Virus record (IMG/VR): IMGVR_UViG_3300023184_000079
Span: 17,645-81,644 of that record
Length of the DNA stretch: 64,000 nt
Reading direction: 5' to 3' (one strand)
Source of the DNA: a virus
The position numbers were made by a program, and so were the translations under genes. Below are positions 1-55,450 of the stretch, piece by piece; position 1 is the first letter of the stretch; each line of letters opens with the position of its first letter. Below the pieces are notes generated by a model. That model had not been told where the DNA came from. It searched no databases and was given only the letters and a program-made list of their open reading frames with translations.

Positions 1-1253
1 TCAACAGTGGCTACCAAAGGATTTGTTGCCGACACCATATAGTTTGTGTATGACAACTCACGCCCAGCATCCCACTCATTTGGCGTGTTCATGTCTGTAA
101 GAATTCTTGTATCAAGACGATCATAGGCTAGCGTCCCCTGATTGGACGCAAGACGAACAGAATTGCTAGTGAATGCGTAAAAGCCAGAACCACCAAGCCC
201 GGTGATAACCGGGGGTTGACCCCCATAGGGGTAGTAATTAGGGTTATTTCCCTGTAGAGCGGTTGCTGGCGGAAGGTTATTACCCTCGCCATCCTTTAGT
301 GGGGCTCTTCCGCCACTGGTGTCTTTTTTGCGAATGTTGTGGATATGGTTATCGTCTGCGACAAGGATATTTCCTGTTGAGCCTCCTACTTTGCCTGTTC
401 CTTTTTTTACGATTTGATTATACTTGTTATCAGGCGCGGCCATATCAACTGAATCGGCAGAGGTACCATAATGCGAGTGATTTGGTATCAGATGCTGATG
501 GTTCATGCCGTGCTGATGGGGGTTCAGGATATGCTTGTGATTAGTGATGCTATGGACGTGAGGCATCGCGTGGCTGTGGGACGGAATAAGAAGAGCCGAA
601 CCAGCCCCGTGATGGTGTGTTATGTCGCGAATGACATTCGTACCAGACTTGGCCGTGCCAATTGCTGTCTCTTTCCCGGAGTCGTAGCCAACACCGGGGG
701 CATAACTAGGGCCGTCTTGCGGCTCGGCTTGGCCGTCATCAATGTTATTGTAATCAGTAATTGCATCAGCACCCTGAGTGTTCTGGGCACCGACAACAGT
801 CTTGTTGCGAAGATCAGGAACAACAATTGGCTGTGTAAAACCATACGAATGGTCGGCAATCTCACTTCCGTCGCAGACGACCCAACCATTTGGCGGCTGA
901 AGATTGGCAACTGGACGCCACCACGCAACAATTGTTCCAAGTGGAACGTCATTGAAGTTTAGGCCAGAGATAACATTGTAGAGATTCTTTCCAGATTTCT
1001 GCTCAGGATAGTTTCCGTAGCCACCGCCGGGAACACGCTCCTTATCGGACCAGCCGTAGGGTTTGCTTGCACCGCCGATCCATTGGGATTCAACGCCAGT
1101 TGGATACTGTGTTGCGCTGCTTTGTCCGGGTCCTCCGTCCGGGCCACCAATTATCTCATCGATTTTGTCCCAGTTGTAAGAAAGATCGTTGTGGCTGTAT
1201 TGGTCTGTTCCCAGATCCCATATGCGAAATCTTCCTAAAAGAGATTTTCGCAT
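1..1253 (-). CDS. Tail collar-domain fibre protein, C terminus beyond window
   Basis: Reads leftward from ATG at 1253 and stays open to the window edge (about 417 codons), so the C terminus is missing. Residues about 97-135 carry a phage tail-collar signature (PLGTIVAWW, PPNGWVVCDGSE, VPDLRNKTVVGA). Residues about 215-270 are crowded with HxH pairs (HSHAMPHVH, NHKHILNPHQHG), the type of motif that binds metal in T4-like fibre tips. The start lies 3 nt after the stop of the gene upstream, so it continues the leftward fibre operon. Role as receptor-binding fibre is inferred from the domain. Confidence 0.85.
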   Translation of the reverse strand, partial: MRKSLLGRFRIWDLGTDQYSHNDLSYNWDKIDEIIGGPDGGPGQSSATQYPTGVESQWIGGASKPYGWSDKERVPGGGYGNYPEQKSGKNLYNVISGLNFNDVPLGTIVAWWRPVANLQPPNGWVVCDGSEIADHSYGFTQPIVVPDLRNKTVVGAQNTQGADAITDYNNIDDGQAEPQDGPSYAPGVGYDSGKETAIGTAKSGTNVIRDITHHHGAGSALLIPSHSHAMPHVHSITNHKHILNPHQHGMNHQHLIPNHSHYGTSADSVDMAAPDNKYNQIVKKGTGKVGGSTGNILVADDNHIHNIRKKDTSGGRAPLKDGEGNNLPPATALQGNNPNYYPYGGQPPVITGLGGSGFYAFTSNSVRLASNQGTLAYDRLDTRILTDMNTPNEWDAGRELSYTNYMVSATNPLVATV

Positions 1254-1256
1254 TTA

Positions 1257-3617
1257 TTAAGCCCCAAACAAGAAGTAGTCGTCGTCTTCAAATCCCATTT
1301 CCTCGGGATAATGTGTGCCCTCTAAGTCAAGTTTGTCTAGATTGCGAGCGACGCCACCTTCATTAATAAAATGTTTTTGTTCATGAGGTTGGTAATCGTA
1401 ACCTGCAGTTTTGTTGGGCTTCTTGCTTTTCGGAGATTTCGGAGGCTGGGGGCTTTGCATTCTGCGGGAACCAATTTCGACATCCTGACCCTGCGCTTGC
1501 TGTTCAAGAATACGCACCTGCCTACGGATCCACTTCTCGCTATTTATTAGGGAGCGAGGGTCAGACGGTGTTGCAGAAAAGTTTCCGACTTTCACTCCAT
1601 TCCAATAAACGGTATAATGACCCGTTCCACCCAGAGTTACAATAAACTTTTCGCTCTCTAGGCGATCCTTGAGCGCTTTCACATCTCTGTTGGACACAGA
1701 GTAGTAATGGTCCTCAAGGCTTGCCTTACGCCCGCCGCTTAAATCTGTTGTACCCACGCCGTCTTGATGCCCCGGGCCTGCGTCATCCATTGTTTCAGGA
1801 GTTCCTGCTAGGGCGTCGTGCTCATCACCGCCGATTTCATTGGGGTTGAGTTTATCAACCTTTTCAATGTTTAAATCTTGAACCATAATGTCTTTAAGCG
1901 AGATGATATAGGGATGACCATCGTCATCGGGGAAAGCGGAATCGACACGGGTGACTTCGATGTATTGTGGATTGATTTCTTCGACCTTAATAACCTCGGG
2001 AAGTTCACCCTCGGGACCAATCTTGTAGACGCTACCGATTTCTAACTCGTCTCCTTCGGAATCCTGAATGCGGTCGCCATCGGCAGAACCCTCTTCATAA
2101 TCGTCTTCGCCCGGATATTCGTAAAATCGAACATCCTCACCCTCATCCTCGCTAGTTGCAGTAATAATCCAATTACGACTGCTTGCCATGACAAGATCCC
2201 CGGCAGGAGCAGACTCGTACGAACCGTTATCTACTGCGGAACCATAATCCGCATAATTCTCAGCCGGTAGGTAATCGTTATACGAAGGAGAGGAATCACC
2301 GGTATTGGTCATGTTATCGGTTTTAACAACAGTCTCTTCCTGAGGAGTTTCGTAGTCTTCGTAGAATTCTTCTATCTCAGGTTGTTCAAACTCAACCTCT
2401 TGTGTCTCCTCCATGACGGGATTCTGCGCTTGTTCAAAAGCCTTCTGCTCTTCGCGCTGTTGCTTGCGCTCTTCTGTTTCGCGTGCTTTTGTATCCCAAT
2501 ATTCGTTCAGGACCATCTCGGGTTTAAAGCGGCATTTAGTGCCCTCTGCTTCGCCCCAGCCGCCCTTGCAGGAGTTCTGAGTGTAAAGATGCTGGGACAA
2601 CGCACTGAGCGCAGAGCCGGGGTCATGGAGCGCTACAGCGTAGTCAACGAGATCAGCGTGATATGGGCACATTTTTGGCTTGCGAGCAGCCACGACTCTT
2701 AGCGTTTTGGTGATCTTGGGATACACGGGGAAGTTCAGTGTCTGGGGAACAGTGCTTGTTGGAGCCTGAGAAGGTTGTGCCGCAGGGGCTGGCTGCTGTG
2801 TAGGCTGATTTGTGGCCTCAATGGAGACAACAGGGCAGTCTGGAAGCGCCGGTACGTTTGAACAGGCCTGCTGGCCAATCACCACTGGTCGGTTGCACTT
2901 GCGACAGATGGCGCTATTGGGCTGGTCAGCGGCGACTTTCGATTCTTTTTTCTCTTTACCACTGGCCTCATCACGAGCCTTGGTGTATTCTTCGCCGAAA
3001 ACATTCTCAAAGAGTTCGTCAAGGGACTTGATTGCAGGGTTGTCTTCGCCGGAGTCTTCTTTGTCAGCAAACTCAATCATTGCAGGAATGCCTTCAGAGA
3101 TAAGTTCGGAAACGAGTTCCATTGCGCTGTCAATATCGTCTGCCTCTACATGATCGTGAATAACGCTGAGAGTGCCACCGATGTCGTTGACATCCTTTAG
3201 GTACTCATCGCCATCACCGTGTGTCATGTTATAATTGCCGGTGCCACCATTTTCGGGATGAGAGTTAATGCCATCAATTTCTATAGCAAAGGTGCCGGAA
3301 CTAGGTTCGGTAGTGCTTGTGTAATTGAATGGCGACTGATATGCGGGAACACCATCTGCATAATTTGTAGAACTCTCGTCGCCGGTCAATGCGTCTCCGA
3401 CGTCCTCGCCGCCCTTAAAGACGGCTTGACCAATAGCCCCTCTTGCGCCGAACCCAAGTGCTTTGCCTGCGAGACCGCCTAGACCGCCAGCGGCTGCCGC
3501 ACCTTCACCCGCAGCAGCAGCACCGGCACCAATACCGAGCGCCTCGGCAATTGGCGCGGCCAATGCAAGTAGCGGTGCAAAAGAAACTTTTTGGTTGGCC
3601 TGTCTCGCATTGTTCAT
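1257..3617 (-). CDS. Large phage protein with Gly/Ala-rich segment and zinc ribbons; frame continues upstream across a TAG
   Basis: First in-frame ATG is at 3617 (786 aa), but the same frame is open without any ATG, GTG or TTG back to a TAG at 3822-3824, and that extension holds two CxxC pairs (CEDCG, CYGCC). Residues 10-65 from the ATG form a hydrophobic Gly/Ala-rich stretch that could insert in a membrane; residues about 235-265 contain another CxxC (ICRKCNRPV). The rest is acidic and low complexity. I do not recognise the family. The position beside fibre genes suggests a virion or assembly protein. The true start is uncertain; the gene may be one 1028-codon unit with 3822-4343. Confidence 0.7.
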   Translation of the reverse strand: MNNARQANQKVSFAPLLALAAPIAEALGIGAGAAAAGEGAAAAGGLGGLAGKALGFGARGAIGQAVFKGGEDVGDALTGDESSTNYADGVPAYQSPFNYTSTTEPSSGTFAIEIDGINSHPENGGTGNYNMTHGDGDEYLKDVNDIGGTLSVIHDHVEADDIDSAMELVSELISEGIPAMIEFADKEDSGEDNPAIKSLDELFENVFGEEYTKARDEASGKEKKESKVAADQPNSAICRKCNRPVVIGQQACSNVPALPDCPVVSIEATNQPTQQPAPAAQPSQAPTSTVPQTLNFPVYPKITKTLRVVAARKPKMCPYHADLVDYAVALHDPGSALSALSQHLYTQNSCKGGWGEAEGTKCRFKPEMVLNEYWDTKARETEERKQQREEQKAFEQAQNPVMEETQEVEFEQPEIEEFYEDYETPQEETVVKTDNMTNTGDSSPSYNDYLPAENYADYGSAVDNGSYESAPAGDLVMASSRNWIITATSEDEGEDVRFYEYPGEDDYEEGSADGDRIQDSEGDELEIGSVYKIGPEGELPEVIKVEEINPQYIEVTRVDSAFPDDDGHPYIISLKDIMVQDLNIEKVDKLNPNEIGGDEHDALAGTPETMDDAGPGHQDGVGTTDLSGGRKASLEDHYYSVSNRDVKALKDRLESEKFIVTLGGTGHYTVYWNGVKVGNFSATPSDPRSLINSEKWIRRQVRILEQQAQGQDVEIGSRRMQSPQPPKSPKSKKPNKTAGYDYQPHEQKHFINEGGVARNLDKLDLEGTHYPEEMGFEDDDYFLFGA

Positions 3618-3821
3618 TGGCGCGTGGTCTTTAATGTACTCTTCGGGGCTTATGCCATTCTTTTCTTTGCAACAGCCATAGCAGACGCCCTCAACTAGGG
3701 GATCGCCACAGTCTTCACAGACGAGGTTGTTGGCATAATGACGATCTTCCCACTCAGCCTGCTCACGAACGTGAGAGTGCTGGGGGAGTCGTGAGCGCTC
3801 GTTGTACTGACCCGATGGGAA

Positions 3822-4343
3822 CTATCTATCTGTTTTCTCTGGATCGGGTTCGGCTGTTTCTGCGCGTTCCATAAACGATTCAAGATCATGTGGGACTGGC
3901 GGCATCTGGACCACATCCTCTGCATCATCCACGAACTTTTGCTCGGGGTTGCCTTCTTCGTCTTTACGATTGTTATAAAGTTCTTTCTCAACGTGACGGA
4001 CTACGGAGTTGCCACCGATGTCTGAGCGCATATGCTCGTCGTCATAATCTTCGCCCTCAGAAACTTCGTGAGGCGCGCCGGTCTCCCAATATTGTCGGGA
4101 GAGGCTTACAACGTCCCAGCCACTTTCTTTATTAAAAACAATAGTCTCATCCTTGTGGCAATTAGCCAGACGATATTGAGCAACATCGGGTTCTGGGCTG
4201 ATCGCCGATTCCCAATTGACAACGGCGGTCTTAACGACGCGGCCGTCTTCAAACTCTACGGTGTACTCTTTTGACTCCTTATTGAAGTCCAAAATGATTC
4301 CGGGTACGGCACCGGCAAAAACGGTCAGGCCAAGATGATTCAT
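3822..4343 (-). CDS. Unrecognised protein, possibly the N-terminal part of the following gene
   Basis: 173 aa from ATG at 4343 to TAG at 3822-3824. The N-terminal 60 residues look like a small beta-barrel (VPGIILDFNKESKEYTVEF), the remainder is acidic. It is in the same frame as the 786-aa reading frame downstream, and the 68 codons between contain no further stop and no usual start codon. Either the TAG is decoded (readthrough or suppression), or it is a nonsense mutation or sequence error, or translation restarts far downstream. No function assigned. Confidence 0.65.
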   Translation of the reverse strand: MNHLGLTVFAGAVPGIILDFNKESKEYTVEFEDGRVVKTAVVNWESAISPEPDVAQYRLANCHKDETIVFNKESGWDVVSLSRQYWETGAPHEVSEGEDYDDEHMRSDIGGNSVVRHVEKELYNNRKDEEGNPEQKFVDDAEDVVQMPPVPHDLESFMERAETAEPDPEKTDR

Positions 4344-4384: not shown

Positions 4385-5056
4385 CTAGATTTTTATTATG
4401 TGCCATATTTCTATATATGGCGGGTCGGTTGTTGATGGCGAAGCGCTTGAATATGGAACTGTTTGGCTATGAGAGTGACCGTGAACATTGGAAGCAATCT
4501 CTGTTCTTGCTGTAAGAACGTGAGAATGATTATTTCCTGAACCATATTGAAAATCAATAGCAACGGAATGTTGGTGGGTAGATCCGATAACAGATTGGGT
4601 GCCGCTGGTTACGACCGCCGAAAAGTTTGTATCGGAGTTTCCTGTACTGTTGATGTACGCCCAATGGCCACCAGCATAAGTTTCGGCTGTCGTCGCCGTC
4701 GCGGCATTATAGGAATGAGTGTGGTTTGCGTTGGGTAGATTTCCACTAATTGCAAAATTGGGGGAGTGCGTATGATTTCTCAGATCTGTACTCGGCAAAG
4801 AATAGGATGCCCCTCCCGCACTACCGCTGCCCGAGGATTTAAGATATCTTCCACCATAAGTAGAAGTTTGCCCCGGTAGACGGAAATTTCCCGCGCCTTC
4901 TCCGCTAGTATTGTATGTCGTTCCTATCGCCACAAAAAGGGCGGGGTAGGTGGTATAAGACACAGGGAGTCCATTGCAATAAAGCCAGCCGGGGGGCGGT
5001 GTGCTATTTGCGCCTCCCAAATAGGGGACTATTGTTCCTGAGGGGATATTTGTCAT
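4385..5056 (-). CDS. Tail collar-domain fibre protein
   Basis: 223 aa. Begins directly with the collar motif (SGTIVPYLGG, PPPGWLYCNGLPVS, NFRLPGQTSTYGGRYLKS), followed by HxH-containing repeats (NHTHS, HQHS, NHSHV, HGHSHS) and a C-terminal YIEIWHIIKI typical of collar fibres. Its start overlaps the stop of the neighbour by 4 nt, so translation is probably coupled. A short receptor-binding fibre or adhesin is the likely role. The stop is TAG, with a TAA two codons further on. Confidence 0.87.
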   Translation of the reverse strand: MTNIPSGTIVPYLGGANSTPPPGWLYCNGLPVSYTTYPALFVAIGTTYNTSGEGAGNFRLPGQTSTYGGRYLKSSGSGSAGGASYSLPSTDLRNHTHSPNFAISGNLPNANHTHSYNAATATTAETYAGGHWAYINSTGNSDTNFSAVVTSGTQSVIGSTHQHSVAIDFQYGSGNNHSHVLTARTEIASNVHGHSHSQTVPYSSASPSTTDPPYIEIWHIIKI

Positions 5057-5751
5057 GTTTTTATTAGAAATCCTACGACTATTGCTGGTAGATCATTTGA
5101 TCCGGAAAAGTTTGAGGTTGGGTTTGTAACGTTTGTCGATGTATGAGCATGTGCGCCCGAGGTATTCATCCAACCAAATTCGGAAATGCTATGACTATGA
5201 TTGCCAGAATTGTAGTATGTATTTACCGCCGCAAAAGAATGCGAGTGACTACTGCTGTTTGCACCACCCGCAGTGCTGATAGTTCCTGAAGTTGCTTTAA
5301 TATTCGGATTTTGTGACGTGTTTCCTCCGATGTTTCCAGAATTCGTGCCGTGGCTGTGATCTCCAGAAGCATTCATCCACCCGGCGTAGCCATTGTCGTA
5401 GTTAGGAGACCCATGGTAATGCGTTCCAGTGCTTGCGGAAGAGTATGCAAGATCTGATGTTGCGCTGTGTGTATGGTTTGAGGCTCCCCCACTGCCTAAA
5501 GAGGAAGTTGTTCCCAAAGGAGTGTACCCAGATCCGAAATGAGGCAGAGCGAAATAACCGCTTGGCACTGCCGAACTGTTTATTGCTAGATACGCAGAGT
5601 CATATGCTCCGGCTATTACAGCCGAAAGTTCTGGGTAGAGCGATGTTTGTTTTGTGGTTCCATCACAAGCAAGCCAGCCAGAGGGTATGGTAGAAGACAA
5701 ATTCGGCAATATCATTCCGGTCTTAATTCCATGAAAGGGAATCTCAGCCAT
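5053..5751 (-). CDS. Tail collar-domain fibre protein
   Basis: 232 aa, paralogue of its neighbours: collar motif at the N terminus (GIKTGMILPNLS, PSGWLACDGTTK, FALPHFGSGYTPLG), then Ser/Gly-rich sequence with many HxH pairs (NHTHSA, GTHYHG, GDHSHG, SHSHSF, GAHAHT). The C terminus ends in a hydrophobic VVGFLIKT. It overlaps the upstream gene by 8 nt and the downstream start by 4 nt, showing one tightly packed fibre operon. Confidence 0.87.
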   Translation of the reverse strand: MAEIPFHGIKTGMILPNLSSTIPSGWLACDGTTKQTSLYPELSAVIAGAYDSAYLAINSSAVPSGYFALPHFGSGYTPLGTTSSLGSGGASNHTHSATSDLAYSSASTGTHYHGSPNYDNGYAGWMNASGDHSHGTNSGNIGGNTSQNPNIKATSGTISTAGGANSSSHSHSFAAVNTYYNSGNHSHSISEFGWMNTSGAHAHTSTNVTNPTSNFSGSNDLPAIVVGFLIKT

Positions 5752-6487
5752 TTGTCACCCCCGCATATACGATATATTTTACTTTTGTGTGCGGAGGAAG
5801 GTGCGATGAAGAGTTTGAAGCGATTGTTCCCGAGGAGAACGACAACGTATGGTCGTGGGCCTCATAACCAAGGTACGTTGTGGTTTCCACTGACGTTGTG
5901 TTGCTATTGCTGGACCTAACAATAGTATGACCATGATTGGCTGATGTCGTATTATACGTTGCGGTATGTGCGTGTGGAGAATAAGTCGTAGCAAGATCGT
6001 CAGGAGCGCCCTTATAGTTGCCGCTGCCGGTTCTGTATACGTTCGCCACCCCGCCGCCGCCTGACGCTGCGGAAGCGCTGTGAGTATGGGCGTGCTCTGC
6101 AACTGCTGGATAATTAACATTGTGATTATGCGCCGATTCGGAATTTGAAGACCAAGAATTAGTGTTGGTGGTCAAATTGTGGCTGTGTGTGTTTCCGCCC
6201 CCGGTGGTTGCAGAAGATCTGCTTGTCCCCATACGAAGGAACTTCCCGTCAAAGGATGGAAGCACAAACTGACTGCCCGAATTTGCACCAAAAGGAAACG
6301 CAGTGGCCTCGGCAGTAATCACCGAATAAAGGCGGCCGTAGGTGTTGATCGATTTCAAAGAGCCATCGCAAAGGAGCCAACCGGTAGGTATCGTTGCCCC
6401 CGGCCAAGCCATGACGGTTCCAATTGGAAAAGCAAAAACTGGCTTCCTCTTGTTTGCGTAGATCTTATTTCTTGTCGTTATAAACAT
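5744..6487 (-). CDS. Tail collar-domain fibre protein
   Basis: 247 aa. Residues about 20-85 form the collar domain (FPIGTVMAWPGATIPTGWLL, VLPSFDGKFLRMGTSR); the rest is Ser/Thr/Gly-rich with HxH motifs (NTHSHN, HAHTHS, HAHTAT, HDHTLS) and ends KVKYIVYAGVTNG. The ATG lies one codon after a TAG that ends the large fibre gene in the same frame, so readthrough of that TAG would join this domain to the C terminus of the large fibre. Role: receptor-binding or adhesin subunit. Confidence 0.87.
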   Translation of the reverse strand: MFITTRNKIYANKRKPVFAFPIGTVMAWPGATIPTGWLLCDGSLKSINTYGRLYSVITAEATAFPFGANSGSQFVLPSFDGKFLRMGTSRSSATTGGGNTHSHNLTTNTNSWSSNSESAHNHNVNYPAVAEHAHTHSASAASGGGGVANVYRTGSGNYKGAPDDLATTYSPHAHTATYNTTSANHGHTIVRSSNSNTTSVETTTYLGYEAHDHTLSFSSGTIASNSSSHLPPHTKVKYIVYAGVTNG

Positions 6488-6490
6488 GAT

Positions 6491-8404
6491 CTACACCAAG
6501 AAGTCGCCGATAGCAACCCACGTTTCTGGAGAACTTTTAATACAGACAAGAGTAGCCGTTGAATACTGGGCGCGCAATACGAAAGGTGCACTTCCGTCGC
6601 TGCTGACAATAGTCACACCGGACGCGGCGATTGTTACAGCACCCGCTCCTGTTTGAAGCAATTGAATCTGCGAGCCAAGAGCGAACACACCGGACGGAAT
6701 GTTTACCGTTACAGGGGAGGAACTATTGACGGTGTTTATCTTGTTGTCTTCTGCTCCTGCGGCTAATGTCGTGGGGGAGGTTGTGATCTCCGAGAAGGAC
6801 AGGTTCTTGATATCGCTGCCAAGTTTGGAATACGAAATACTTCCGGCAAGATCGGTGTTTGTAACGCTACCAGAAAGATTAAGTTTAGAATAGGCAATGG
6901 CCGCGCCCGACGCTACGTCGGCATTAGCAATGCTAGTGGCAAGATTTAACTTGCTATAGGCAATAGCCGCGCCAGAGGCAACGTCGGCATTTACGATGCT
7001 GGTTGCCAGATTGAGTTTGGAATAGGCAATCGCTGCGCCAGATGCTACGTCAGCATTAACAATGCTTGTGGCGAGATTAAGTTTGCTATATAAAATCGCA
7101 GCGCCAGAGGCAACGTCGGCGTTGACAACTCCACCCGTTAGATTGAGTTTGCTATATACGATTGCCGCGCTTACGGAAACGTCAGCGTTAACAACACCAC
7201 CCGATAGGTTTAGTTTTGCATAGCCTATAGAACTGTCGGTGATGCCGTGGGCGTGATCTGCACGGGCAAGGCGAGTGCTTGTACCTACGGCGGCGGTTCC
7301 AATAGCGGCTGGAGTAGCGGCTGCGGCCTGTCCAAGGACAAATGCAGTGGTGGCTATCTGTGTTGTGTTTGTATCAACCGCTGCCGTGGTTGCCAACGGT
7401 GCTCCGGTAAGAGACGGGCTTGCAAGGGTGGCGTATGCCTGAGCCTTAACAAAGGCGGTTGTAGCAACCTTTGTGGAACTGTCTGCGGTCAGGGCGGTTG
7501 TGGTTGTCGGGGCACCCGGCAAGGCAACGTCTGACTTGATTGTTGGTGCCGGATAAGTACCAGCAAGATCACCAGACGCAGGACCCGTAGGAGCGCGGGA
7601 ATCGGTAAGCGCAGCGTTGTCTGTGTAAACGGGTGTCTTGCCGTTTACGGTTAGCGTAGACGAGATCGCAAGACTTCCAGTTAGGGTTAATGCGGCCGAG
7701 CCTGAACGGGCGAGAGTAGCATCAATAGAGCCAGAGCCAGACGACCAGCCGAGAGAGCCTGCAGAGTTTATGCGGAAACGGTATTGGCTTTCTGACGCAA
7801 TAGAAACAGATAGGGCATTTGCCGAGTCATTTGTTGCACGACCAATGTCAACGGCACCAGCGCTATTGATACGAGCGCCGGAGCCCGAATAAGCAGAGGG
7901 GTTAGATCCGACAAGAACATCATTATCTGATCGAAGAAGTCCAGCCGAACCGCGATACAGGTTGGCATCGGTAGAGGAACTACCGCCAACGCCCCAACTC
8001 AATTCACCAGTTTTGCTTACTCTGAAAGAGGGTTGGGCATCTGCAACGGCGAGATAACTTCCAAATACATTTGTAGCGGCTGTCGCTGCAATTTCCCCAG
8101 ACGTAACCTTGCCGCTGGCCGCAACCTTAAACAGTTCGCTTGAAGAACTGCTGACCTTAAATAGGTCTGCGGTCTGACTCACAAGACCTTGGACTGCTAA
8201 AGGAGTTGTGCTTGTAGATGCAGAAAGCGAGAATAGGGCCGCACCGGCCTGACCCCGGAGAACGTTCTGTATCTTGATAACCTCATCCCAAAGGGGGGCA
8301 ACATGTGAATACAGAATATCCTGACCATTCAGGATTGTATCGGGCTTTAGTGTGGTGGACCCGGGGAAGTATGGCGTATACGGATCCGCAGGCGTATACG
8401 TCAT
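6491..8404 (-). CDS. Large tail fibre protein with 22-residue repeats
   Basis: 637 aa. The N-terminal 60 residues (short, Tyr/Pro-rich, then DEVIKIQNVLRG) would attach to the tail. The middle is Ser/Ala-rich with motifs common in tail fibres (SGDLAGTYPAPT, STKVATTAFVKAQ, TTQIATTAFV). Residues about 395-530 carry tandem repeats of 22 residues (YSKLNLATSIVNADVASGAA), and the C terminus is a small beta-rich domain (VTVNIPSGVFALGSQIQLLQ). Terminates at TAG, one codon before the in-frame ATG of a collar gene. A trimeric fibre is the expected fold; host receptor unknown. Confidence 0.85.
   Translation of the reverse strand: MTYTPADPYTPYFPGSTTLKPDTILNGQDILYSHVAPLWDEVIKIQNVLRGQAGAALFSLSASTSTTPLAVQGLVSQTADLFKVSSSSSELFKVAASGKVTSGEIAATAATNVFGSYLAVADAQPSFRVSKTGELSWGVGGSSSTDANLYRGSAGLLRSDNDVLVGSNPSAYSGSGARINSAGAVDIGRATNDSANALSVSIASESQYRFRINSAGSLGWSSGSGSIDATLARSGSAALTLTGSLAISSTLTVNGKTPVYTDNAALTDSRAPTGPASGDLAGTYPAPTIKSDVALPGAPTTTTALTADSSTKVATTAFVKAQAYATLASPSLTGAPLATTAAVDTNTTQIATTAFVLGQAAAATPAAIGTAAVGTSTRLARADHAHGITDSSIGYAKLNLSGGVVNADVSVSAAIVYSKLNLTGGVVNADVASGAAILYSKLNLATSIVNADVASGAAIAYSKLNLATSIVNADVASGAAIAYSKLNLATSIANADVASGAAIAYSKLNLSGSVTNTDLAGSISYSKLGSDIKNLSFSEITTSPTTLAAGAEDNKINTVNSSSPVTVNIPSGVFALGSQIQLLQTGAGAVTIAASGVTIVSSDGSAPFVLRAQYSTATLVCIKSSPETWVAIGDFLV
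6811..7225 (-). repeat. Coding tandem repeat, 66-bp unit, in the large tail fibre gene
   Basis: About six to seven copies of a 66-bp unit encode YSKLNL-x7-NADVASGAAI-type 22-residue repeats. Central copies are nearly identical at protein level and outer ones diverge (KLNLSGG, KLGSD), the pattern expected of repeat growth by recombination in a fibre shaft. Confidence 0.8.
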
Positions 8405-9986: not shown

Positions 9987-10502
9987 TTAGTGTTTTATAT
10001 GTAGGTCGTGCGTTTGCGGTTTAAGACTCTTAGGATTAAGCACCTCGCACAGACCGCCCTGCTTCGTACCGTCGGTAAAGATTACCCACCACTTACGTGG
10101 ACGGAGTCCTAGATAAATCTCTGTCCGATCCCAATAAACTACTTCTGCAAGTTGTTGAGGGCCGCTTCCAACATGAGCAAAACAGAAGCCGGGGATGGGG
10201 CCGGGGTAGTCTCTGCTTGAAACAACCGAGTTATTGACCCCCGCTTTATCGCCTTTCATATCAAACTGGACTTCACGTACCCAGACAGAGGCCTTGAGTT
10301 CGCAACCATTGCACCAGCAGGTATCTTGGCGCTGTTCAGACTTAATGGTCAGAATATTGTCTATGGCGTCCTGCATTATTTTTTCCCGTATCGTTGCTTC
10401 TTCTTTATTTGAGCCAACCGGGGTCTTTGTTGCCAGAAAGGTATTGCCGTCACGGTATTCGTTGGCGTACTCTTCTTCTTTGATTTCTTCTTCTTCGTTC
10501 AT
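9987..10502 (-). CDS. Unrecognised acidic protein with two Cys pairs
   Basis: 171 aa from ATG 10502, which overlaps the stop of the giant gene upstream in an ATGA. Begins with a very acidic stretch (NEEEEIKEEEYANEY). Residues about 60-75 contain CWCNGCELKA, a possible metal site, and the C-terminal half is Trp/Tyr-rich (RPRKWWVIFTDGTKQGGL). No family recognised. The overlap says it is co-translated with the 1544-aa protein. Confidence 0.7.
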   Translation of the reverse strand: MNEEEEIKEEEYANEYRDGNTFLATKTPVGSNKEEATIREKIMQDAIDNILTIKSEQRQDTCWCNGCELKASVWVREVQFDMKGDKAGVNNSVVSSRDYPGPIPGFCFAHVGSGPQQLAEVVYWDRTEIYLGLRPRKWWVIFTDGTKQGGLCEVLNPKSLKPQTHDLHIKH

Positions 10503-13500
10503 ACTACGCCTTCTCCATCGCATACATCGCATTTGGCGGTGACTCTACCATCGGAGTCACAATCATAGCAAGTGGTTTGCCCGTGTCCATTGCATAATCC
10601 GCAAGTCACCCTCCCCGTGGCTTCACAACTCTCGCACGGCAGGCCATCAACGTGACCGTCTCCATCGCAATATCCACATTGCGCCTTGCCGCTCCCTATG
10701 TACATACCGGGACGGCGGCGGTCGGTGACGGCCATGTCGCATCCGTCGCATTTTAGTTTCTCCGTGCCATCGCACTTAGGACATTTTATATTAACTTCGC
10801 CATTTCCTTTACAATTGGAGCAAGTGTTGTCTGTTACTAAGCCGTGTCCATTGCAGATTTCGCAAATTTTCGAGAAATCCGAATACTCCGACAACCCATA
10901 ACCACTGCACGTGTCACACATCTTAAGGGCAACCTCGTCGTTGCTCCCGGTTTCCGCGTCCGCCTGCGTTAGATCCATTATTCGAAAATAACCGTTATTA
11001 AATCTCATTATCGCAAGATTTTTACCCCCAATAGTAGGATCAGTTATTTCGCTTTCTGTAGCGTCCGGCGGTTCTAGTTTCATTCTGCTCAAAGTAGAAA
11101 GCGACTCGGCCAAATCCATTTGCGAGACAGCATGCGTTCCGTCCCGGGCACCGTCGTCCATTCCCAATGCTAACATGTCTGATGCATTGTTGCGCATTGC
11201 AATTTGAACCCACGCTGCATATTCTTCGACATACCCAACAGCCGGAAAATTTTTACGCAAACTTGCGTTATGCCAAAGAATTTCAAGGCCTTGCCTATAG
11301 CCTTCCTCAAAATATTCGCTGATAATTCCGAAAGACTTCAAAAGATTTTTCATTCTGCGCTGATCCGTGCCTTTGTCGGTCGCAGCGAAACTTCCAGCGT
11401 AAGCAAGTATGTCGCTATTAACCGCGACAATAAGATCATTGGTAAAACCATTGTATTTTGCAGGAACTAGGTTAGTAGGATTTGCTATTTGTGCAAGCGT
11501 GTCAACGTCATTAAAATAAACAAATGGCGTTTTGGCGTCAAATGTTTTTGACCACATATCTAGTAAGTTGTCGTCTATCTTTCCACGCGCGAATTCAAGA
11601 ATCATTTGAAATTTTCTATACTCATTTTCTTCCCCGAGCAGGCCATCCGTTGTGCACTTGAAATAGTCAGAAAGAACTTCTGGATTTTCGTTATCAAGAT
11701 GATAAAGTTCCATTCCCAAAGTATTATAAAGACGCTTCCAGTCCTCTCTCTCTATCACGTTCCTCAGCCACCCCGGATCAGAACTTGTTTCGGCAACAAT
11801 TTCCGCAATATCATATATAATCTTTATGAACGTAATCTCAGCCGCTCTTTGTATTTGTTGAAGAGTAGTCGATGGAGATAATGAGGGATAATTATAAACT
11901 TCATTATTAATAAATACTGGCGTTTTTTCGCCATTACCATTGTCGTTAACAACCCACCAATCTGGACGTTCAATTTCTTGAAAAAGAGGCAACTGTTTAT
12001 CTTCTATGTAAATCGAATGATCTTCTTTAACCTTTTGATATATACGATTAAAATATTTCTGTTTTGCATTATCCACAGCCCGAGGGTCTGCCCGGTCTAA
12101 AACACCACCGTCTTCTAGTTCAACTTCTGCGTTATTGCCGTTGATATCCTGCTGAATCAAATTGAATTGTTGGGCGCTAAAGATATTCTTGAAAGTCTCA
12201 TAGTTTGAATAAAAATTTTGGTAGAATAGATATGCTCCGACACCGGGGTCTTCTGCAAAACTGCGCCGCCACTGCGTAAAAGAAATGTCTAAATCGCGCA
12301 GACACTGCCGAGTATCATCAATGGCATTTTCGGTTGCATAACTTTGCGATGCTATGGCGTCCAACAGGTCATTGCTGGAGACACTCTCATCAAGAAGGAA
12401 CTCTACCATTTTTTGAATTGTTTCATTGGGTCTTGTACTATTTGCAACAATAGAGCGCAGCCCCACTCCCACGTTTGGCTTGCTGCCCAAGTCAATGGCA
12501 GGGTCTACGCTTGTGTTGAGGTACGACATAATAACGTAATAGTAGGCAGCGTTTTTTGCGCCAACCTGATCATAGAAGTCGTCGCCCATAGTGTCTTTTT
12601 TGGTGTCCTCCCGGCCCCGGGCAAGTCGTTCTGATATAAGATCAATAATTTCATTGAACGGCTCCTCGGCCGCCCGATTGTTACCGAAAACTTCTGAACA
12701 GAAGGAATCTCCGTCACGGAAGGCGTCGCCGACACCTTTCATTTGTAAATCTTTGCTCCAATATCGCACCCCCTCTTTCGCCTTTGCCGAAAGCGTTTTT
12801 ATATTGCCAATCTCCTCCCCCTGCTCAATTCTGTAATAATTTTTGCCCTCGCGGAAAAAGAAAGTAATCAAAAGTATGATAACATCATGATATCTGTTTT
12901 TCGACCCTATATCTAACCCAACCAGTCCGATTATTTCTGCGACCATTGAGCGATAATCGTCCGGATACTCGGCCCATCTGGAAGCGTTTTCCAACGCCTC
13001 TTCGTAAATCTCGTCTTCAATTCTTGTCAAAAGGGTTTCCTCTTCAAAGAATTCGGCAACGTTGACTACAATATCTGTTCTAAGTTCTGAGTCAAACATT
13101 TTTTTGCCGGATATTCCAAGAGCGGCTTTAAATCCCTTTGCCTGCTCTGCCCGTCGCCGTGACCCCTCGAAGGCCTCCGACGACAGGCTTGCGTATTCGA
13201 CGACTCGTCGCTGCATTTCGTTGGCTCGTCGTATCTGTCTTCCCATCCCGCCGCCACGCAGCGCGTCTTTGTTGAGATAAATATCTATTAGGTTAATAAA
13301 AATATTAGAAGTATTTTTTTCAGAAATAGATGACGCTTGTATTAACTTGCGGTTCTCTCGCATCGGTCCAAAGTCTGGATCAACATGCTCTGTATTGTTC
13401 TCTTTCGACCACCGTATGCCCTGAAGAACTTCTTCTGGTGAGTAGGTGTTCATATACTCTTCAAGTTCTTTATCACCGCCCTCTTGATCGTCGCGAAGGA

Positions 13501-15133
13501 GGGGCATAATAAATCTTCCATATGCGTACTTGCCCTTTGCATTTAGATCTCTTAATGTCTCCCAATAATCTTCCCATGACATCGGCTCAAGAAGGTTTGT
13601 CTCGCCATTCTCTCTGACTCTTTCTTTTGAATTCTCATATTGGTCGTGATCTCCAGAAAGAAAATCTTCATAAAATTTAGATTTTCTTTCGCCAATGGCT
13701 TCTTCCGACGTGTCTACCCCAAGATATGCAAAAATATCTCTGAGCGCAAAGGCAGTCGGGTATGTTGGAATTCCATTTTTCCAAGAGTGCATGGCTGAAA
13801 GAACATATGAGCCCGGATCATTCATAATGGTAAACGTTGCTTGTGGAACTCCTTTGAGACGTACAGAGAAATCTCTGCTTATACCCTGATCGTGAGCGCG
13901 CTCGTAGTAGCCATGGCCGCCCCCAATACAATGGTCTAGAACCGCGCCCTCATTGGCGTAGTCGTCTTGCGTTTCCAGTTCGTAGAACTCCCAAGCGTCT
14001 GGTCTATTCTTATCCGGATCCACGCTTGGCACACCTTCTATCAAGCGCCCACCGAGACCGAAGTTTCTTGCGACAAAAGCCGTATTTGTGCTGCGCATGT
14101 TTTTCATTATGATTTTGGAGGCAACTGCAAGAACGGCAGCCGGAGTTTTGGCTTCATTAGCAAAGCGAATGGCAGGTCCTAGTACGTCGCGGTTATCATA
14201 TGGAATCTGTTCAGTTTCAAAATAATGTTTGGAATCGCCGTTTAAAAATGTATAGGGATTTGTTTTTAAATTTTGAACCAGTTCGCTATCAAGTTTGACG
14301 AAATCATAACTGTCAGTAACTTTCCTCTTTGAAAAAACATCCCAAGCCACTATTGCTTCCTTCATCTTCCTCAAGTCTTGGGCGCTTGTTGCGGCTCTGT
14401 ACATTAAATTAATAATGTCTGAAAAATAGTTTTTGTCTTCCATCATTTGCTTAAAAAGCAAATCAAAGAACTTCATAATTGCTCTATATCCACCGTCTGA
14501 ATTTGGATCCATCGGATCATATATCTTATAGAATCCATTTTTTAGCCTTTCTCGCGTCTGTCCTGTCGATTGAATTATTCCTTGCGGACCAACGTCACTA
14601 TCGTTTAGAAGCCACGGAATTTGCAGGGGGAAAATGGTAAATTTGTCAAGACAGGTCGTGAGGTTATCAATAAACTCCAGATACGTTTTTTCCGCTGATA
14701 AGTCATCAGAGATTAACCATTTCAAAGAATTTTGCTTTAAATCTTGATTAACCATTTCAAAGAATTTTGCTTTAAATCTTTTTGTTGAGGCGTTTGCAAT
14801 TATTTTTTCAAATGCCTGCTCTATACTCAGTATTGTTGCATCAGCCTCTACGATGAAAGATGCCGTGCGGGACAAGTAATCATAGACGACATCTGCGATG
14901 GCGTTACGGTCGCCGCTAGCGTCCTCAAACTTGACGTATCCGCCGGGGGTGATCTCTCCCTTGGCAAACAATCCTTGTGAGGAGTGGGGCAGGTATCCCG
15001 ATGCCATGAGATTGACCTCGGTTCTCAACTCCGGCATGCCCTCTTCCAGAAGAGCGAAGTGCGGATTATCCCCAATGTTTACATACGGCGCTTCGCCGTC
15101 AAAGGGAATAAATGCTATCCAATTCTTCGACAT
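10499..15133 (-). CDS. Giant PcfJ-like protein with C-terminal DnaJ-type zinc repeats
   Basis: 1544 aa. Residues about 375-470 contain a PcfJ-like core: EGAVLDHCIGGGHGYY, then SRDFSVRLKGVPQATFTI and a SYVLSAMHSWKNG segment. The C-terminal 150 residues hold about ten CxxC motifs, several of the DnaJ form CxxCxGxG (CDTCSGYG, CEICNGHG, CSNCKGNG, CGYCDGDG, CGLCNGHG). The middle is a long alpha-helical region without recognisable motifs. PcfJ-like proteins occur on conjugative elements and phages; their function is unknown to me. A perfect 35-bp tandem duplication lies at residues about 118-141. A TAATAGA motif directly precedes the start. Confidence 0.85.
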   Translation of the reverse strand: MSKNWIAFIPFDGEAPYVNIGDNPHFALLEEGMPELRTEVNLMASGYLPHSSQGLFAKGEITPGGYVKFEDASGDRNAIADVVYDYLSRTASFIVEADATILSIEQAFEKIIANASTKRFKAKFFEMVNQDLKQNSLKWLISDDLSAEKTYLEFIDNLTTCLDKFTIFPLQIPWLLNDSDVGPQGIIQSTGQTRERLKNGFYKIYDPMDPNSDGGYRAIMKFFDLLFKQMMEDKNYFSDIINLMYRAATSAQDLRKMKEAIVAWDVFSKRKVTDSYDFVKLDSELVQNLKTNPYTFLNGDSKHYFETEQIPYDNRDVLGPAIRFANEAKTPAAVLAVASKIIMKNMRSTNTAFVARNFGLGGRLIEGVPSVDPDKNRPDAWEFYELETQDDYANEGAVLDHCIGGGHGYYERAHDQGISRDFSVRLKGVPQATFTIMNDPGSYVLSAMHSWKNGIPTYPTAFALRDIFAYLGVDTSEEAIGERKSKFYEDFLSGDHDQYENSKERVRENGETNLLEPMSWEDYWETLRDLNAKGKYAYGRFIMPLLRDDQEGGDKELEEYMNTYSPEEVLQGIRWSKENNTEHVDPDFGPMRENRKLIQASSISEKNTSNIFINLIDIYLNKDALRGGGMGRQIRRANEMQRRVVEYASLSSEAFEGSRRRAEQAKGFKAALGISGKKMFDSELRTDIVVNVAEFFEEETLLTRIEDEIYEEALENASRWAEYPDDYRSMVAEIIGLVGLDIGSKNRYHDVIILLITFFFREGKNYYRIEQGEEIGNIKTLSAKAKEGVRYWSKDLQMKGVGDAFRDGDSFCSEVFGNNRAAEEPFNEIIDLISERLARGREDTKKDTMGDDFYDQVGAKNAAYYYVIMSYLNTSVDPAIDLGSKPNVGVGLRSIVANSTRPNETIQKMVEFLLDESVSSNDLLDAIASQSYATENAIDDTRQCLRDLDISFTQWRRSFAEDPGVGAYLFYQNFYSNYETFKNIFSAQQFNLIQQDINGNNAEVELEDGGVLDRADPRAVDNAKQKYFNRIYQKVKEDHSIYIEDKQLPLFQEIERPDWWVVNDNGNGEKTPVFINNEVYNYPSLSPSTTLQQIQRAAEITFIKIIYDIAEIVAETSSDPGWLRNVIEREDWKRLYNTLGMELYHLDNENPEVLSDYFKCTTDGLLGEENEYRKFQMILEFARGKIDDNLLDMWSKTFDAKTPFVYFNDVDTLAQIANPTNLVPAKYNGFTNDLIVAVNSDILAYAGSFAATDKGTDQRRMKNLLKSFGIISEYFEEGYRQGLEILWHNASLRKNFPAVGYVEEYAAWVQIAMRNNASDMLALGMDDGARDGTHAVSQMDLAESLSTLSRMKLEPPDATESEITDPTIGGKNLAIMRFNNGYFRIMDLTQADAETGSNDEVALKMCDTCSGYGLSEYSDFSKICEICNGHGLVTDNTCSNCKGNGEVNIKCPKCDGTEKLKCDGCDMAVTDRRRPGMYIGSGKAQCGYCDGDGHVDGLPCESCEATGRVTCGLCNGHGQTTCYDCDSDGRVTAKCDVCDGEGVV
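14711..14780 (-). repeat. Perfect 35-bp tandem duplication inside the 1544-aa gene
   Basis: Two identical 35-bp copies (14711-14745 and 14746-14780). Because 35 is not a multiple of three, the copies are read in different frames, giving RFKAKFFEMVN and then DLKQNSLKWLI, yet the gene stays open. Confidence 0.95.
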
Positions 15134-30346: not shown

Positions 30347-30421
30347 TGGGGAAGCCCGGAATCGAACCGGGGCGCCAACAGCGTCAAGCCTGTTGTGTCG
30401 CTACCCTACGACCACCTCCCC
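30347..30421 (-). tRNA. tRNA-like gene with enlarged anticodon loop
   Basis: Acceptor GGGGAGG/CTTCCCC, D stem GTCG/CGAC, T arm CCCGG-TTCGATT-CCGGG are all good. The anticodon arm is CAACAG/CTGTTG around an 8-nt loop GCTTGACG instead of 5 bp and 7 nt, and the variable loop is 4 nt. The isotype cannot be assigned safely. Either a non-canonical tRNA, perhaps affecting frame, or a decaying gene. Confidence 0.75.
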
Positions 30422-54094: not shown

Positions 54095-55450
54095 TTATAT
54101 CAGATAAATGTCTTTAAGCGCAACCCAAACATCAATATGCTCATGATTTGGGTATTGATTCCCAATTTCATAATGGATAAGCGCTAGACGGTCTCTTGGA
54201 TCAACACTTATAACTTTTACTTCTGACTGGGCAGGGATCGCGCCATAAGTTCCGCGTTCTTCTTCTTCGTGCCCCATGTCAAAAAATTCTGGGTGCCAAC
54301 CGAGGTCTTCATCCATAAAAATGAAGTTTCCATCTTCCATGCGGTCAATTGGCGCTGCATCGGGGTGCGCATGAAGTCCGCCTCTGCGCTCTCCCCAAAA
54401 CTCTTTTGTGGTGTATGCAGACACATCACCACCCTCCATAAGTGTATGCTTTATATATTTTATAATGTCATTAATAGGATTTATCTCTTTATCGCCTTTT
54501 ACGGTCAATATTGTGAATGAAGAATTCACTCTCTTCCTTAAATCCTCTAGCCTCTCAACATTTTTGACAAATTTCCCACCCGGACCTCTATAAACTTTTG
54601 CATCGCCAAATCCGGGAATCTCTGTAGGCTGTTTATTCGGCTTTTTGGGTTCTTGATAGCGTGTGTCTAAGTCAAGAGGACGTTGAGCCTGTTCGTAAGG
54701 CAACCATGGCTCTCTGTGGTGTTCTCCCTCTTCGTCCTGCTTTTCTATATTGAACTGCAATGCCTCTTCCTCTGGACTCCATAGCGTCATATTCGTACTC
54801 GGATTGACCGGAACTTCAGCGTCATATCCGAATTCGCCCGGTTCGCCCCGTGAGCGGTCTTTTAAGGCCTCTGGGAGCCTTCCCGGTATCTCCGGTGCCT
54901 CAAACAGTTGCTGCTGGTCCTCGGACGGCTTAGAGCGCTGTATGGCTTCCTGAGAGTCCTCATCTAATTTCTCTTTTTTGGAATGCCAGTACAATGCCAA
55001 TACATGCGAGCAAAGACGCCCTTCATATTTTTTCCATTGCCTTGTGCGGTTCCACACATATCGGTTCCAAGTGCATTCACACGCCCACGAACGAATAAAA
55101 AGAGATCTAGGATCTGAATTGGCTGTCCATATTTGAGATTTATAAACAGAATTGTCGCCAACAACTGTGCCCTCTATATAAATCGGTCCCTCAGGCAATT
55201 CAAAATCGTGTAATTTCTTTTCGCTTATGTAGACCTTGCCGTCGGCTACAAGTCTCTTTGCCTTGTTCTCAACATCAACCCAAGCAGACTCATGCTGAAT
55301 GCGTCCAAGTTTCTCTATGTTTATGCCCTCTGGAAAATATTCAAAAGGCTCTTTGATATTGAGCCGGTCTTCTAAACTAAGCACCGGAGACTCTTTCTCT
55401 AACCTTTTTGTCATCTTGTTTATGAACGACGTAAATGTGATTGATTTCAT
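54095..55450 (-). CDS. SWIM zinc-finger protein
   Basis: 451 aa from ATG 55450; ATG 55414 is also possible since both overlap the upstream gene. Residues about 124-158 form a SWIM finger: CECTWNRYVWNRTRQWKKY and then LCSHVLALYWH, the CxC-x(n)-CxH pattern. SWIM fingers bind DNA or protein. The linker is Pro/Glu-rich, and the C-terminal domain ends YPNHEHIDVWVALKDIYLI. Similar proteins occur near structural genes in large actinophages. Role unknown. Confidence 0.75.
   Translation of the reverse strand: MKSITFTSFINKMTKRLEKESPVLSLEDRLNIKEPFEYFPEGINIEKLGRIQHESAWVDVENKAKRLVADGKVYISEKKLHDFELPEGPIYIEGTVVGDNSVYKSQIWTANSDPRSLFIRSWACECTWNRYVWNRTRQWKKYEGRLCSHVLALYWHSKKEKLDEDSQEAIQRSKPSEDQQQLFEAPEIPGRLPEALKDRSRGEPGEFGYDAEVPVNPSTNMTLWSPEEEALQFNIEKQDEEGEHHREPWLPYEQAQRPLDLDTRYQEPKKPNKQPTEIPGFGDAKVYRGPGGKFVKNVERLEDLRKRVNSSFTILTVKGDKEINPINDIIKYIKHTLMEGGDVSAYTTKEFWGERRGGLHAHPDAAPIDRMEDGNFIFMDEDLGWHPEFFDMGHEEEERGTYGAIPAQSEVKVISVDPRDRLALIHYEIGNQYPNHEHIDVWVALKDIYLI

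What the first reader, a model, noticed from the sequence alone, without database searches (positions are those of the whole stretch)
3618..3824. In-frame TAG splits a large tail-region gene; the gap is coding but has no start codon
The 173-aa frame ends at TAG 3822-3824, the 786-aa frame starts at ATG 3617, and both are in one frame. The 68 codons between contain no stop, no ATG/GTG/TTG, and encode a CxxC...CxxC zinc site. So the natural protein probably spans the TAG. Options: programmed readthrough, amber suppression in late genes as known in some phages, a nonsense mutation, or a base error.
Basis: seen in the sequence. Interest (0 to 1): 0.7.

Follow-up and report, generated by a model that had tools for sequence, protein, structure and literature searches.

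The report
Lone stop codon inside phage gene
A large structural-module gene of an uncultivated bacterial virus carries a single in-frame TAG stop in a stretch that its relatives translate straight through, which is most simply a one-off nonsense variant or base error and not a special decoding trick.

Summary
In detail: on the minus strand one frame runs 4343->1257, broken only by TAG at 3822-3824, followed by 68 sense codons without ATG/GTG/TTG and then ATG 3617. The gap is coding. Four related uncultivated phages (L090, L091/L054, L092, L093/L059) carry this gene as one uninterrupted ORF (621-993 aa), with the same N-terminal domain and C-terminal motif. Three of them carry the gap's HSHVRE..WED + CxxC..CxxC block, with all four cysteines invariant. 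The TAG lies inside a conserved motif (HD..ES..ER..P.P...D-x-[*]-FPSG.YNER), where relatives have Glu, Glu, Gln, Ser. More distant relatives (Mycobacterium phage Flabslab gp91; Gordonia phage Stormageddon gp12; Rhodococcus phage Finch gp16) are also single ORFs, beside the prohead protease and major head protein, so this is the head module, not strictly 'tail region'. 'The natural protein spans the TAG' is supported. Programmed readthrough or amber recoding is not: no relative has a stop there, TAG ends 25 of 95 ORFs of 80 aa or more with ordinary extensions, no CUA tRNA lies in the 81.6 kb record, and no significant RNA structure was found. Best reading: a lone nonsense change or consensus base error. 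Without reads these cannot be separated.

The parts
3822..4343 (-). N-terminal frame, 173 aa, ending in the TAG; N-terminal domain MNHLGLTV...EYTVEFEDGRVVK conserved in L090/L091/L092/L093
3822..3824 (-). in-frame TAG, the only in-frame stop between 4343 and 1257; aligned residues in four relatives are Glu, Glu, Gln, Ser
3792..3896 (-). conserved block HD..ES..ER..P.P...D-x-*-FPSG.YNER that contains the TAG
3618..3821 (-). 68-codon coding gap without ATG/GTG/TTG
3672..3719 (-). CxxC-x8-CxxC putative zinc ribbon (C209, C212, C221, C224), all four Cys invariant in three uninterrupted relatives
1257..3617 (-). C-terminal frame, 786 aa from ATG 3617; no Shine-Dalgarno before this ATG
3426..3584 (-). 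Ala/Gly-rich hydrophobic segment; similar segment at a similar place in Flabslab gp91 and in L061; L062 protein starts here
1299..1412 (-). C-terminal family motif AG..Y.P.EQ..FINE.G.ARNLDKLDL.GTHY
3..1253 (-). downstream tail-collar-type gene; a homologue follows directly in L091

Best explanation
The frame 4343->1257 is one gene for a mosaic, zinc-ribbon-bearing protein of the head/structural module of a large phage distantly related to Bixzunavirus, Stormageddonvirus and Finchvirus. In this single assembled genome the gene is interrupted once by a TAG. The TAG is an isolated nonsense change (a recent mutation or strain variant in the sampled population) or a consensus base error; it is not a programmed signal. 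If it is real, ribosomes would release a 173-aa N-terminal fragment at TAG-U. The rest could be made only by background readthrough, a suppressing host, or weak initiation at ATG 3617, which would lose the zinc ribbon. Shown: the homology, the frame, and the absence of a stop in relatives. Inferred: that it is recent, non-programmed and non-functional.
For: Uninterrupted homologues with N-terminus, gap block and C-terminus in one ORF: L092 906 aa, L090 975 aa, L091/L054 993 aa; L093/L059 (621/623 aa) has both ends without the gap block. One tblastn HSP runs through the TAG: L092 354-489 against window 4100-3660, 51% identity, E 4e-35. The motif block around the TAG scores above all 300 shuffles against L090, L092 and L091. 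More distant syntenic relatives are single ORFs. TAG is an ordinary stop: 25 of 95 ORFs of 80 aa or more, with median in-frame extension 11 codons against 9 (TAA) and 14 (TGA). No CUA-anticodon tRNA in the 81.6 kb. Over the 37.6 kb of this record covered by relatives' proteins, it is the only stop found inside a block conserved on both sides; the one other candidate examined in detail is the natural end of a dUTPase. The frame has not decayed: 68 and 786 codons stay open after the stop.
Against: No near-identical second assembly was found to show that the stop varies, and reads are not available. The frame's intactness over 854 codons after the stop is also what a functional readthrough gene would show. 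The record is a fragment, so a suppressor tRNA outside it is possible; one distant relative (G008) has a candidate tRNA with a UUA anticodon.
Confidence: 0.8

Rival explanations
1. Programmed or suppressed amber readthrough: the TAG is decoded part of the time, giving a 173-aa protein and a 1028-aa extended protein, by leaky context or a suppressor tRNA of phage or host.
For: Both sides stay open and conserved. The record is a fragment, so a tRNA could be unseen. A distant relative (G008) has a candidate tRNA with UUA anticodon, which could also read UAG by wobble. A 7-bp inverted repeat brackets the TAG in the predicted fold.
Against: No relative has a stop at this codon. No CUA tRNA here. 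UAG-U is a poor readthrough context (my knowledge). The fold is not significant (z -1.57). TAG is an ordinary stop elsewhere with no long coding extensions. Known TAG-recoded phages have many such genes, e.g. 41 ORFs in phAss-1 (PMC10607447 abstract).
Confidence: 0.09
2. True gene fission: the gene now works as two genes, a 173-aa protein and a 786-aa protein started at ATG 3617 by reinitiation or coupling.
For: A family member, L062, starts right at the Ala/Gly-rich segment, close to the position of ATG 3617, so a form without the N-terminus exists. Several genes of this phage lack a Shine-Dalgarno, including the true start at 4343.
Against: The conserved zinc ribbon in the gap would be lost, yet it is intact. 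There is no Shine-Dalgarno at 3617 (-0.9 kcal/mol, weaker than the random mean of -2.1), and about 200 nt separate stop and start. No Met at that position in the near relatives.
Confidence: 0.09
3. Alternative genetic code (TAG sense throughout the phage).
For: One in-frame TAG in a structural gene.
Against: 25 of 95 ORFs of 80 aa or more end in TAG with short extensions; several homologous genes in relatives end in TAG as well.
Confidence: 0.01

Closest known systems
Mycobacterium phage Flabslab gp91 (Bixzunavirus, PHROG 2940) and its relatives Stormageddon gp12 and Finch gp16
   Same: Same genomic place (upstream of the protease and major head protein genes), shared C-terminal motif AG...EQ..I.E...LDL.GTHY (P0001 978-1015 against gp91, E 2e-7); gp91 has a similar Ala/Gly-rich segment
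   Different: Central domains differ (SWIM-type zinc finger and LysM in this family; zinc ribbon here); their ORFs have no internal stop; the window protein as a whole does not reach PHROG 2940
IMG/VR uncultivated phages L092 (3300043446_001855), L090 (3300021519_000007), L091/L054 (3300032223_001256)
   Same: Homologue with the same N-terminus, zinc ribbon and C-terminus; in L091 the same collar-type gene follows
   Different: One uninterrupted ORF; an extra domain of about 170-200 aa after the FPSG.YNER motif (in this phage a similar CQCWDGYKR... motif lies in the 383-aa gene further downstream)
Phages with TAG recoding and suppressor tRNAs (crAss-like phages; phAss-1)
   Same: In-frame TAG in a structural gene
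   Different: Those have many recoded genes and suppressor tRNAs; here one TAG, none of the rest

Membership tests
Head-module gp91-type protein family (C-terminal GTHY motif, PHROG 2940-related) | C-terminal motif AG..[YF]...EQ..[LF]I.E...[DN].LdL.GTHY | tested here: met
Head-module gp91-type protein family (C-terminal GTHY motif, PHROG 2940-related) | Position on the protease / major head protein side | tested here: met
   collar-type gene, 383-aa gene, protease-like 844 aa, 193 aa, major head protein follow downstream
Head-module gp91-type protein family (C-terminal GTHY motif, PHROG 2940-related) | Match to the PHROG 2940 profile over the protein | tested here: not met
   P0001 hits only phrog_2089 (883-951) and weakly phrog_2053; phrog_2940 hits another window gene (54095-55450). 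So it is filed as a syntenic relative, not as a PHROG 2940 member
Programmed stop-codon readthrough | Stop codon conserved at the same site in relatives | tested here: not met
Programmed stop-codon readthrough | Stimulatory context or structure | tested here: not met
   z-score -1.57; TAG followed by U
Programmed stop-codon readthrough | Extended product detected | not testable with these tools
   no proteomics
Amber-recoded (code 15) phage | Suppressor tRNA with CUA anticodon | tested here: inconclusive
   none in the 81,644-bp record, but the record is a fragment
Amber-recoded (code 15) phage | Many in-frame TAGs; TAG avoided as stop | tested here: not met

The most novel reading that the evidence does not exclude
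A phage that uses TAG normally keeps one leaky amber codon in a head-module gene, so that a short N-terminal form and a long form with zinc ribbon and C-terminal domain are made in fixed ratio.
Probability: 0.07. Interest if true: 0.6.

Novelty: already known. Interest (0 to 1): 0.15.

Why it matters
Mainly for annotation: the two ORFs and the unannotated gap should be treated as one interrupted gene of the head module, and the zinc ribbon in the gap belongs to it. The homologue set also shows that the family is strongly mosaic in its middle and marked by a short C-terminal motif. If the TAG were programmed it would be an unusual case of amber readthrough in a dsDNA phage structural-module gene, but the evidence points the other way.

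Tried and rejected
Direct searches with the 1028-aa readthrough product found nothing (IMG/VR patterns; phage records). Searching with the large 1544-aa gene and the protease gave no relatives. The route that worked was portal relatives -> syntenic gene -> C-terminal motif alignment A1 -> N-terminal alignment A2 -> gap alignment A4. Pattern search for another copy of the TAG site with the codon left free: no record. Genome contigs with the gap alignment: none. Plasmids: none. Intron/intein: rejected, since the TAG sits in a conserved block and both sides stay in one frame. A +1 slip on GATAGATAG: rejected, since it leaves the conserved frame. A second suspected in-frame stop near 21.08 kb is the natural TAA end of a dUTPase. 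The L062 and L080 upstream in-frame stretches are unrelated (L062 not coding in that frame, L080 the neighbouring portal-like gene, by eye), not split forms.

Full report
Observation. On the minus strand one frame runs from ATG 4343 to a TAA at 1257. It is broken only by TAG at 3822-3824. The 68 codons after the TAG hold no ATG, GTG or TTG; the next start is ATG 3617.

The gap is coding. Its G+C by codon position (0.65/0.40/0.57) resembles both flanks and the two other sense-strand frames contain stops. More decisively, it is homologous to protein sequence in other phages. Taken alone it aligns to L090, L092 and L091 with scores that none of 500 shuffles reach. HSHVRE..WED and all four cysteines of the CxxC-x8-CxxC site are conserved. 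There is no Pfam match to the gap, so 'zinc ribbon' is inferred from the invariant cysteines.

The gene. The window is part of an 81,644-bp virus record. Its portal is related to those of Bixzunavirus, Stormageddonvirus and Finchvirus. Downstream of the interrupted gene lie a collar-type gene, a 383-aa gene, a protease-like protein, a 193-aa gene and the major head protein. In Flabslab (gp91), Stormageddon (gp12) and Finch (gp16) the gene just upstream of the protease-type gene is one long ORF. The C-terminus of the window protein matches gp91 (E 2e-7), and gp91 matches gp12 and gp16. A 1115-aa ORF in G017 lies in the corresponding place. So 'tail region' is better called the head module, with tail-collar genes beside it.

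Close relatives. An alignment of the C-terminal motif brought in 36 IMG/VR loci, and an N-terminal alignment four. L092 (906 aa), L090 (975 aa) and L091/L054 (993 aa) each hold the N-terminal domain, the gap block and the C-terminal motif in one ORF. L093/L059 (621/623 aa) holds both ends. A single HSP of the L092 protein runs through the TAG (51% identity, E 4e-35). The TAG sits within a conserved block, HD..ES..ER..P.P...D-x-*-FPSG.YNER, where the relatives have Glu, Glu, Gln and Ser. None has a stop there. Intact copies of the gene therefore exist, and the natural protein spans this codon. The homologues also show rearrangement: in L092 the FPSG.YNER block lies before an extra domain and the HSHVRE block after it, so the window protein is a mosaic of the same pieces.

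Programmed or not. TAG ends 25 of 95 ORFs of 80 aa or more in the record, with in-frame extensions like those of TAA and TGA. Homologous genes in relatives end in TAG too. ARAGORN finds only a tRNA-Arg(UCU) and an odd tRNA-like element in the record, Rfam only the tRNA-Arg. The folded region round the TAG is not significantly stable (z -1.57), and TAG-U is a poor readthrough context (my knowledge). In the 37.6 kb covered by relatives' proteins no other stop was found inside a block conserved on both sides; the remaining stops in the matches lie at ends, in over-extended starts or on antisense frames by my reading of the table, and only the dUTPase case was examined in detail. Recoded phages described in the literature have many such genes, e.g. 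41 ORFs in phAss-1 (PMC10607447 abstract). All this fits a lone nonsense change or a base error.

Reinitiation at ATG 3617 is possible but weakly supported: no Shine-Dalgarno, and loss of the conserved zinc site. That L062 begins near that point shows only that forms without the N-terminus exist.

Limits. No reads, no near-identical second assembly, a fragmentary record, and no proteomics. Nonsense mutation and base error cannot be separated here.

Noticed in passing
window 30347-30421 (-): ARAGORN reports a tRNA-like gene with an 8-base anticodon loop and a four-base anticodon (TTGA); good acceptor and T arms by eye, but not reported by Rfam at the tRNA gathering score. Possibly a degenerate or frameshift-type tRNA; it does not read UAG.
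   Followed up: partly
L048:5687-5757 (-), record G008: Candidate tRNA with UUA (ochre-suppressor type) anticodon inside an array of 38 tRNA/tmRNA calls in a related 107-kb phage, with a tmRNA at L048:4899-5349.
   Followed up: partly
window 6487-6493 (-): A 637-aa tail-fibre ORF ends in TAG and the next collar gene starts in the same frame one codon later; a homologous collar gene in G001 is free-standing, so it looks like plain adjacency.
   Followed up: partly
window 4385-6487 (-): Three neighbouring tail-collar-type genes that match a similar trio of collar-type genes in G001.
   Followed up: partly
window 54095-55450 (-): A 451-aa gene near the portal carries part of the PHROG 2940/30974 profile that in Flabslab, Stormageddon and Finch lies within the gp91-type protein: likely domain shuffling between head-module genes.
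   Followed up: partly
window 10499-15133 (-): A 1544-aa protein with a sub-threshold DnaJ CXXCXGXG match and almost no relatives in the phage collection or IMG/VR.
   Followed up: no
window 1412 region (P0001 978) and L029:13762-16296: Short [K/R/H]-x-A-G sites occur before the conserved C-terminal tail of this protein and near the C-terminus of the protease-like protein; possibly prohead-protease cleavage sites, untested.
   Followed up: no
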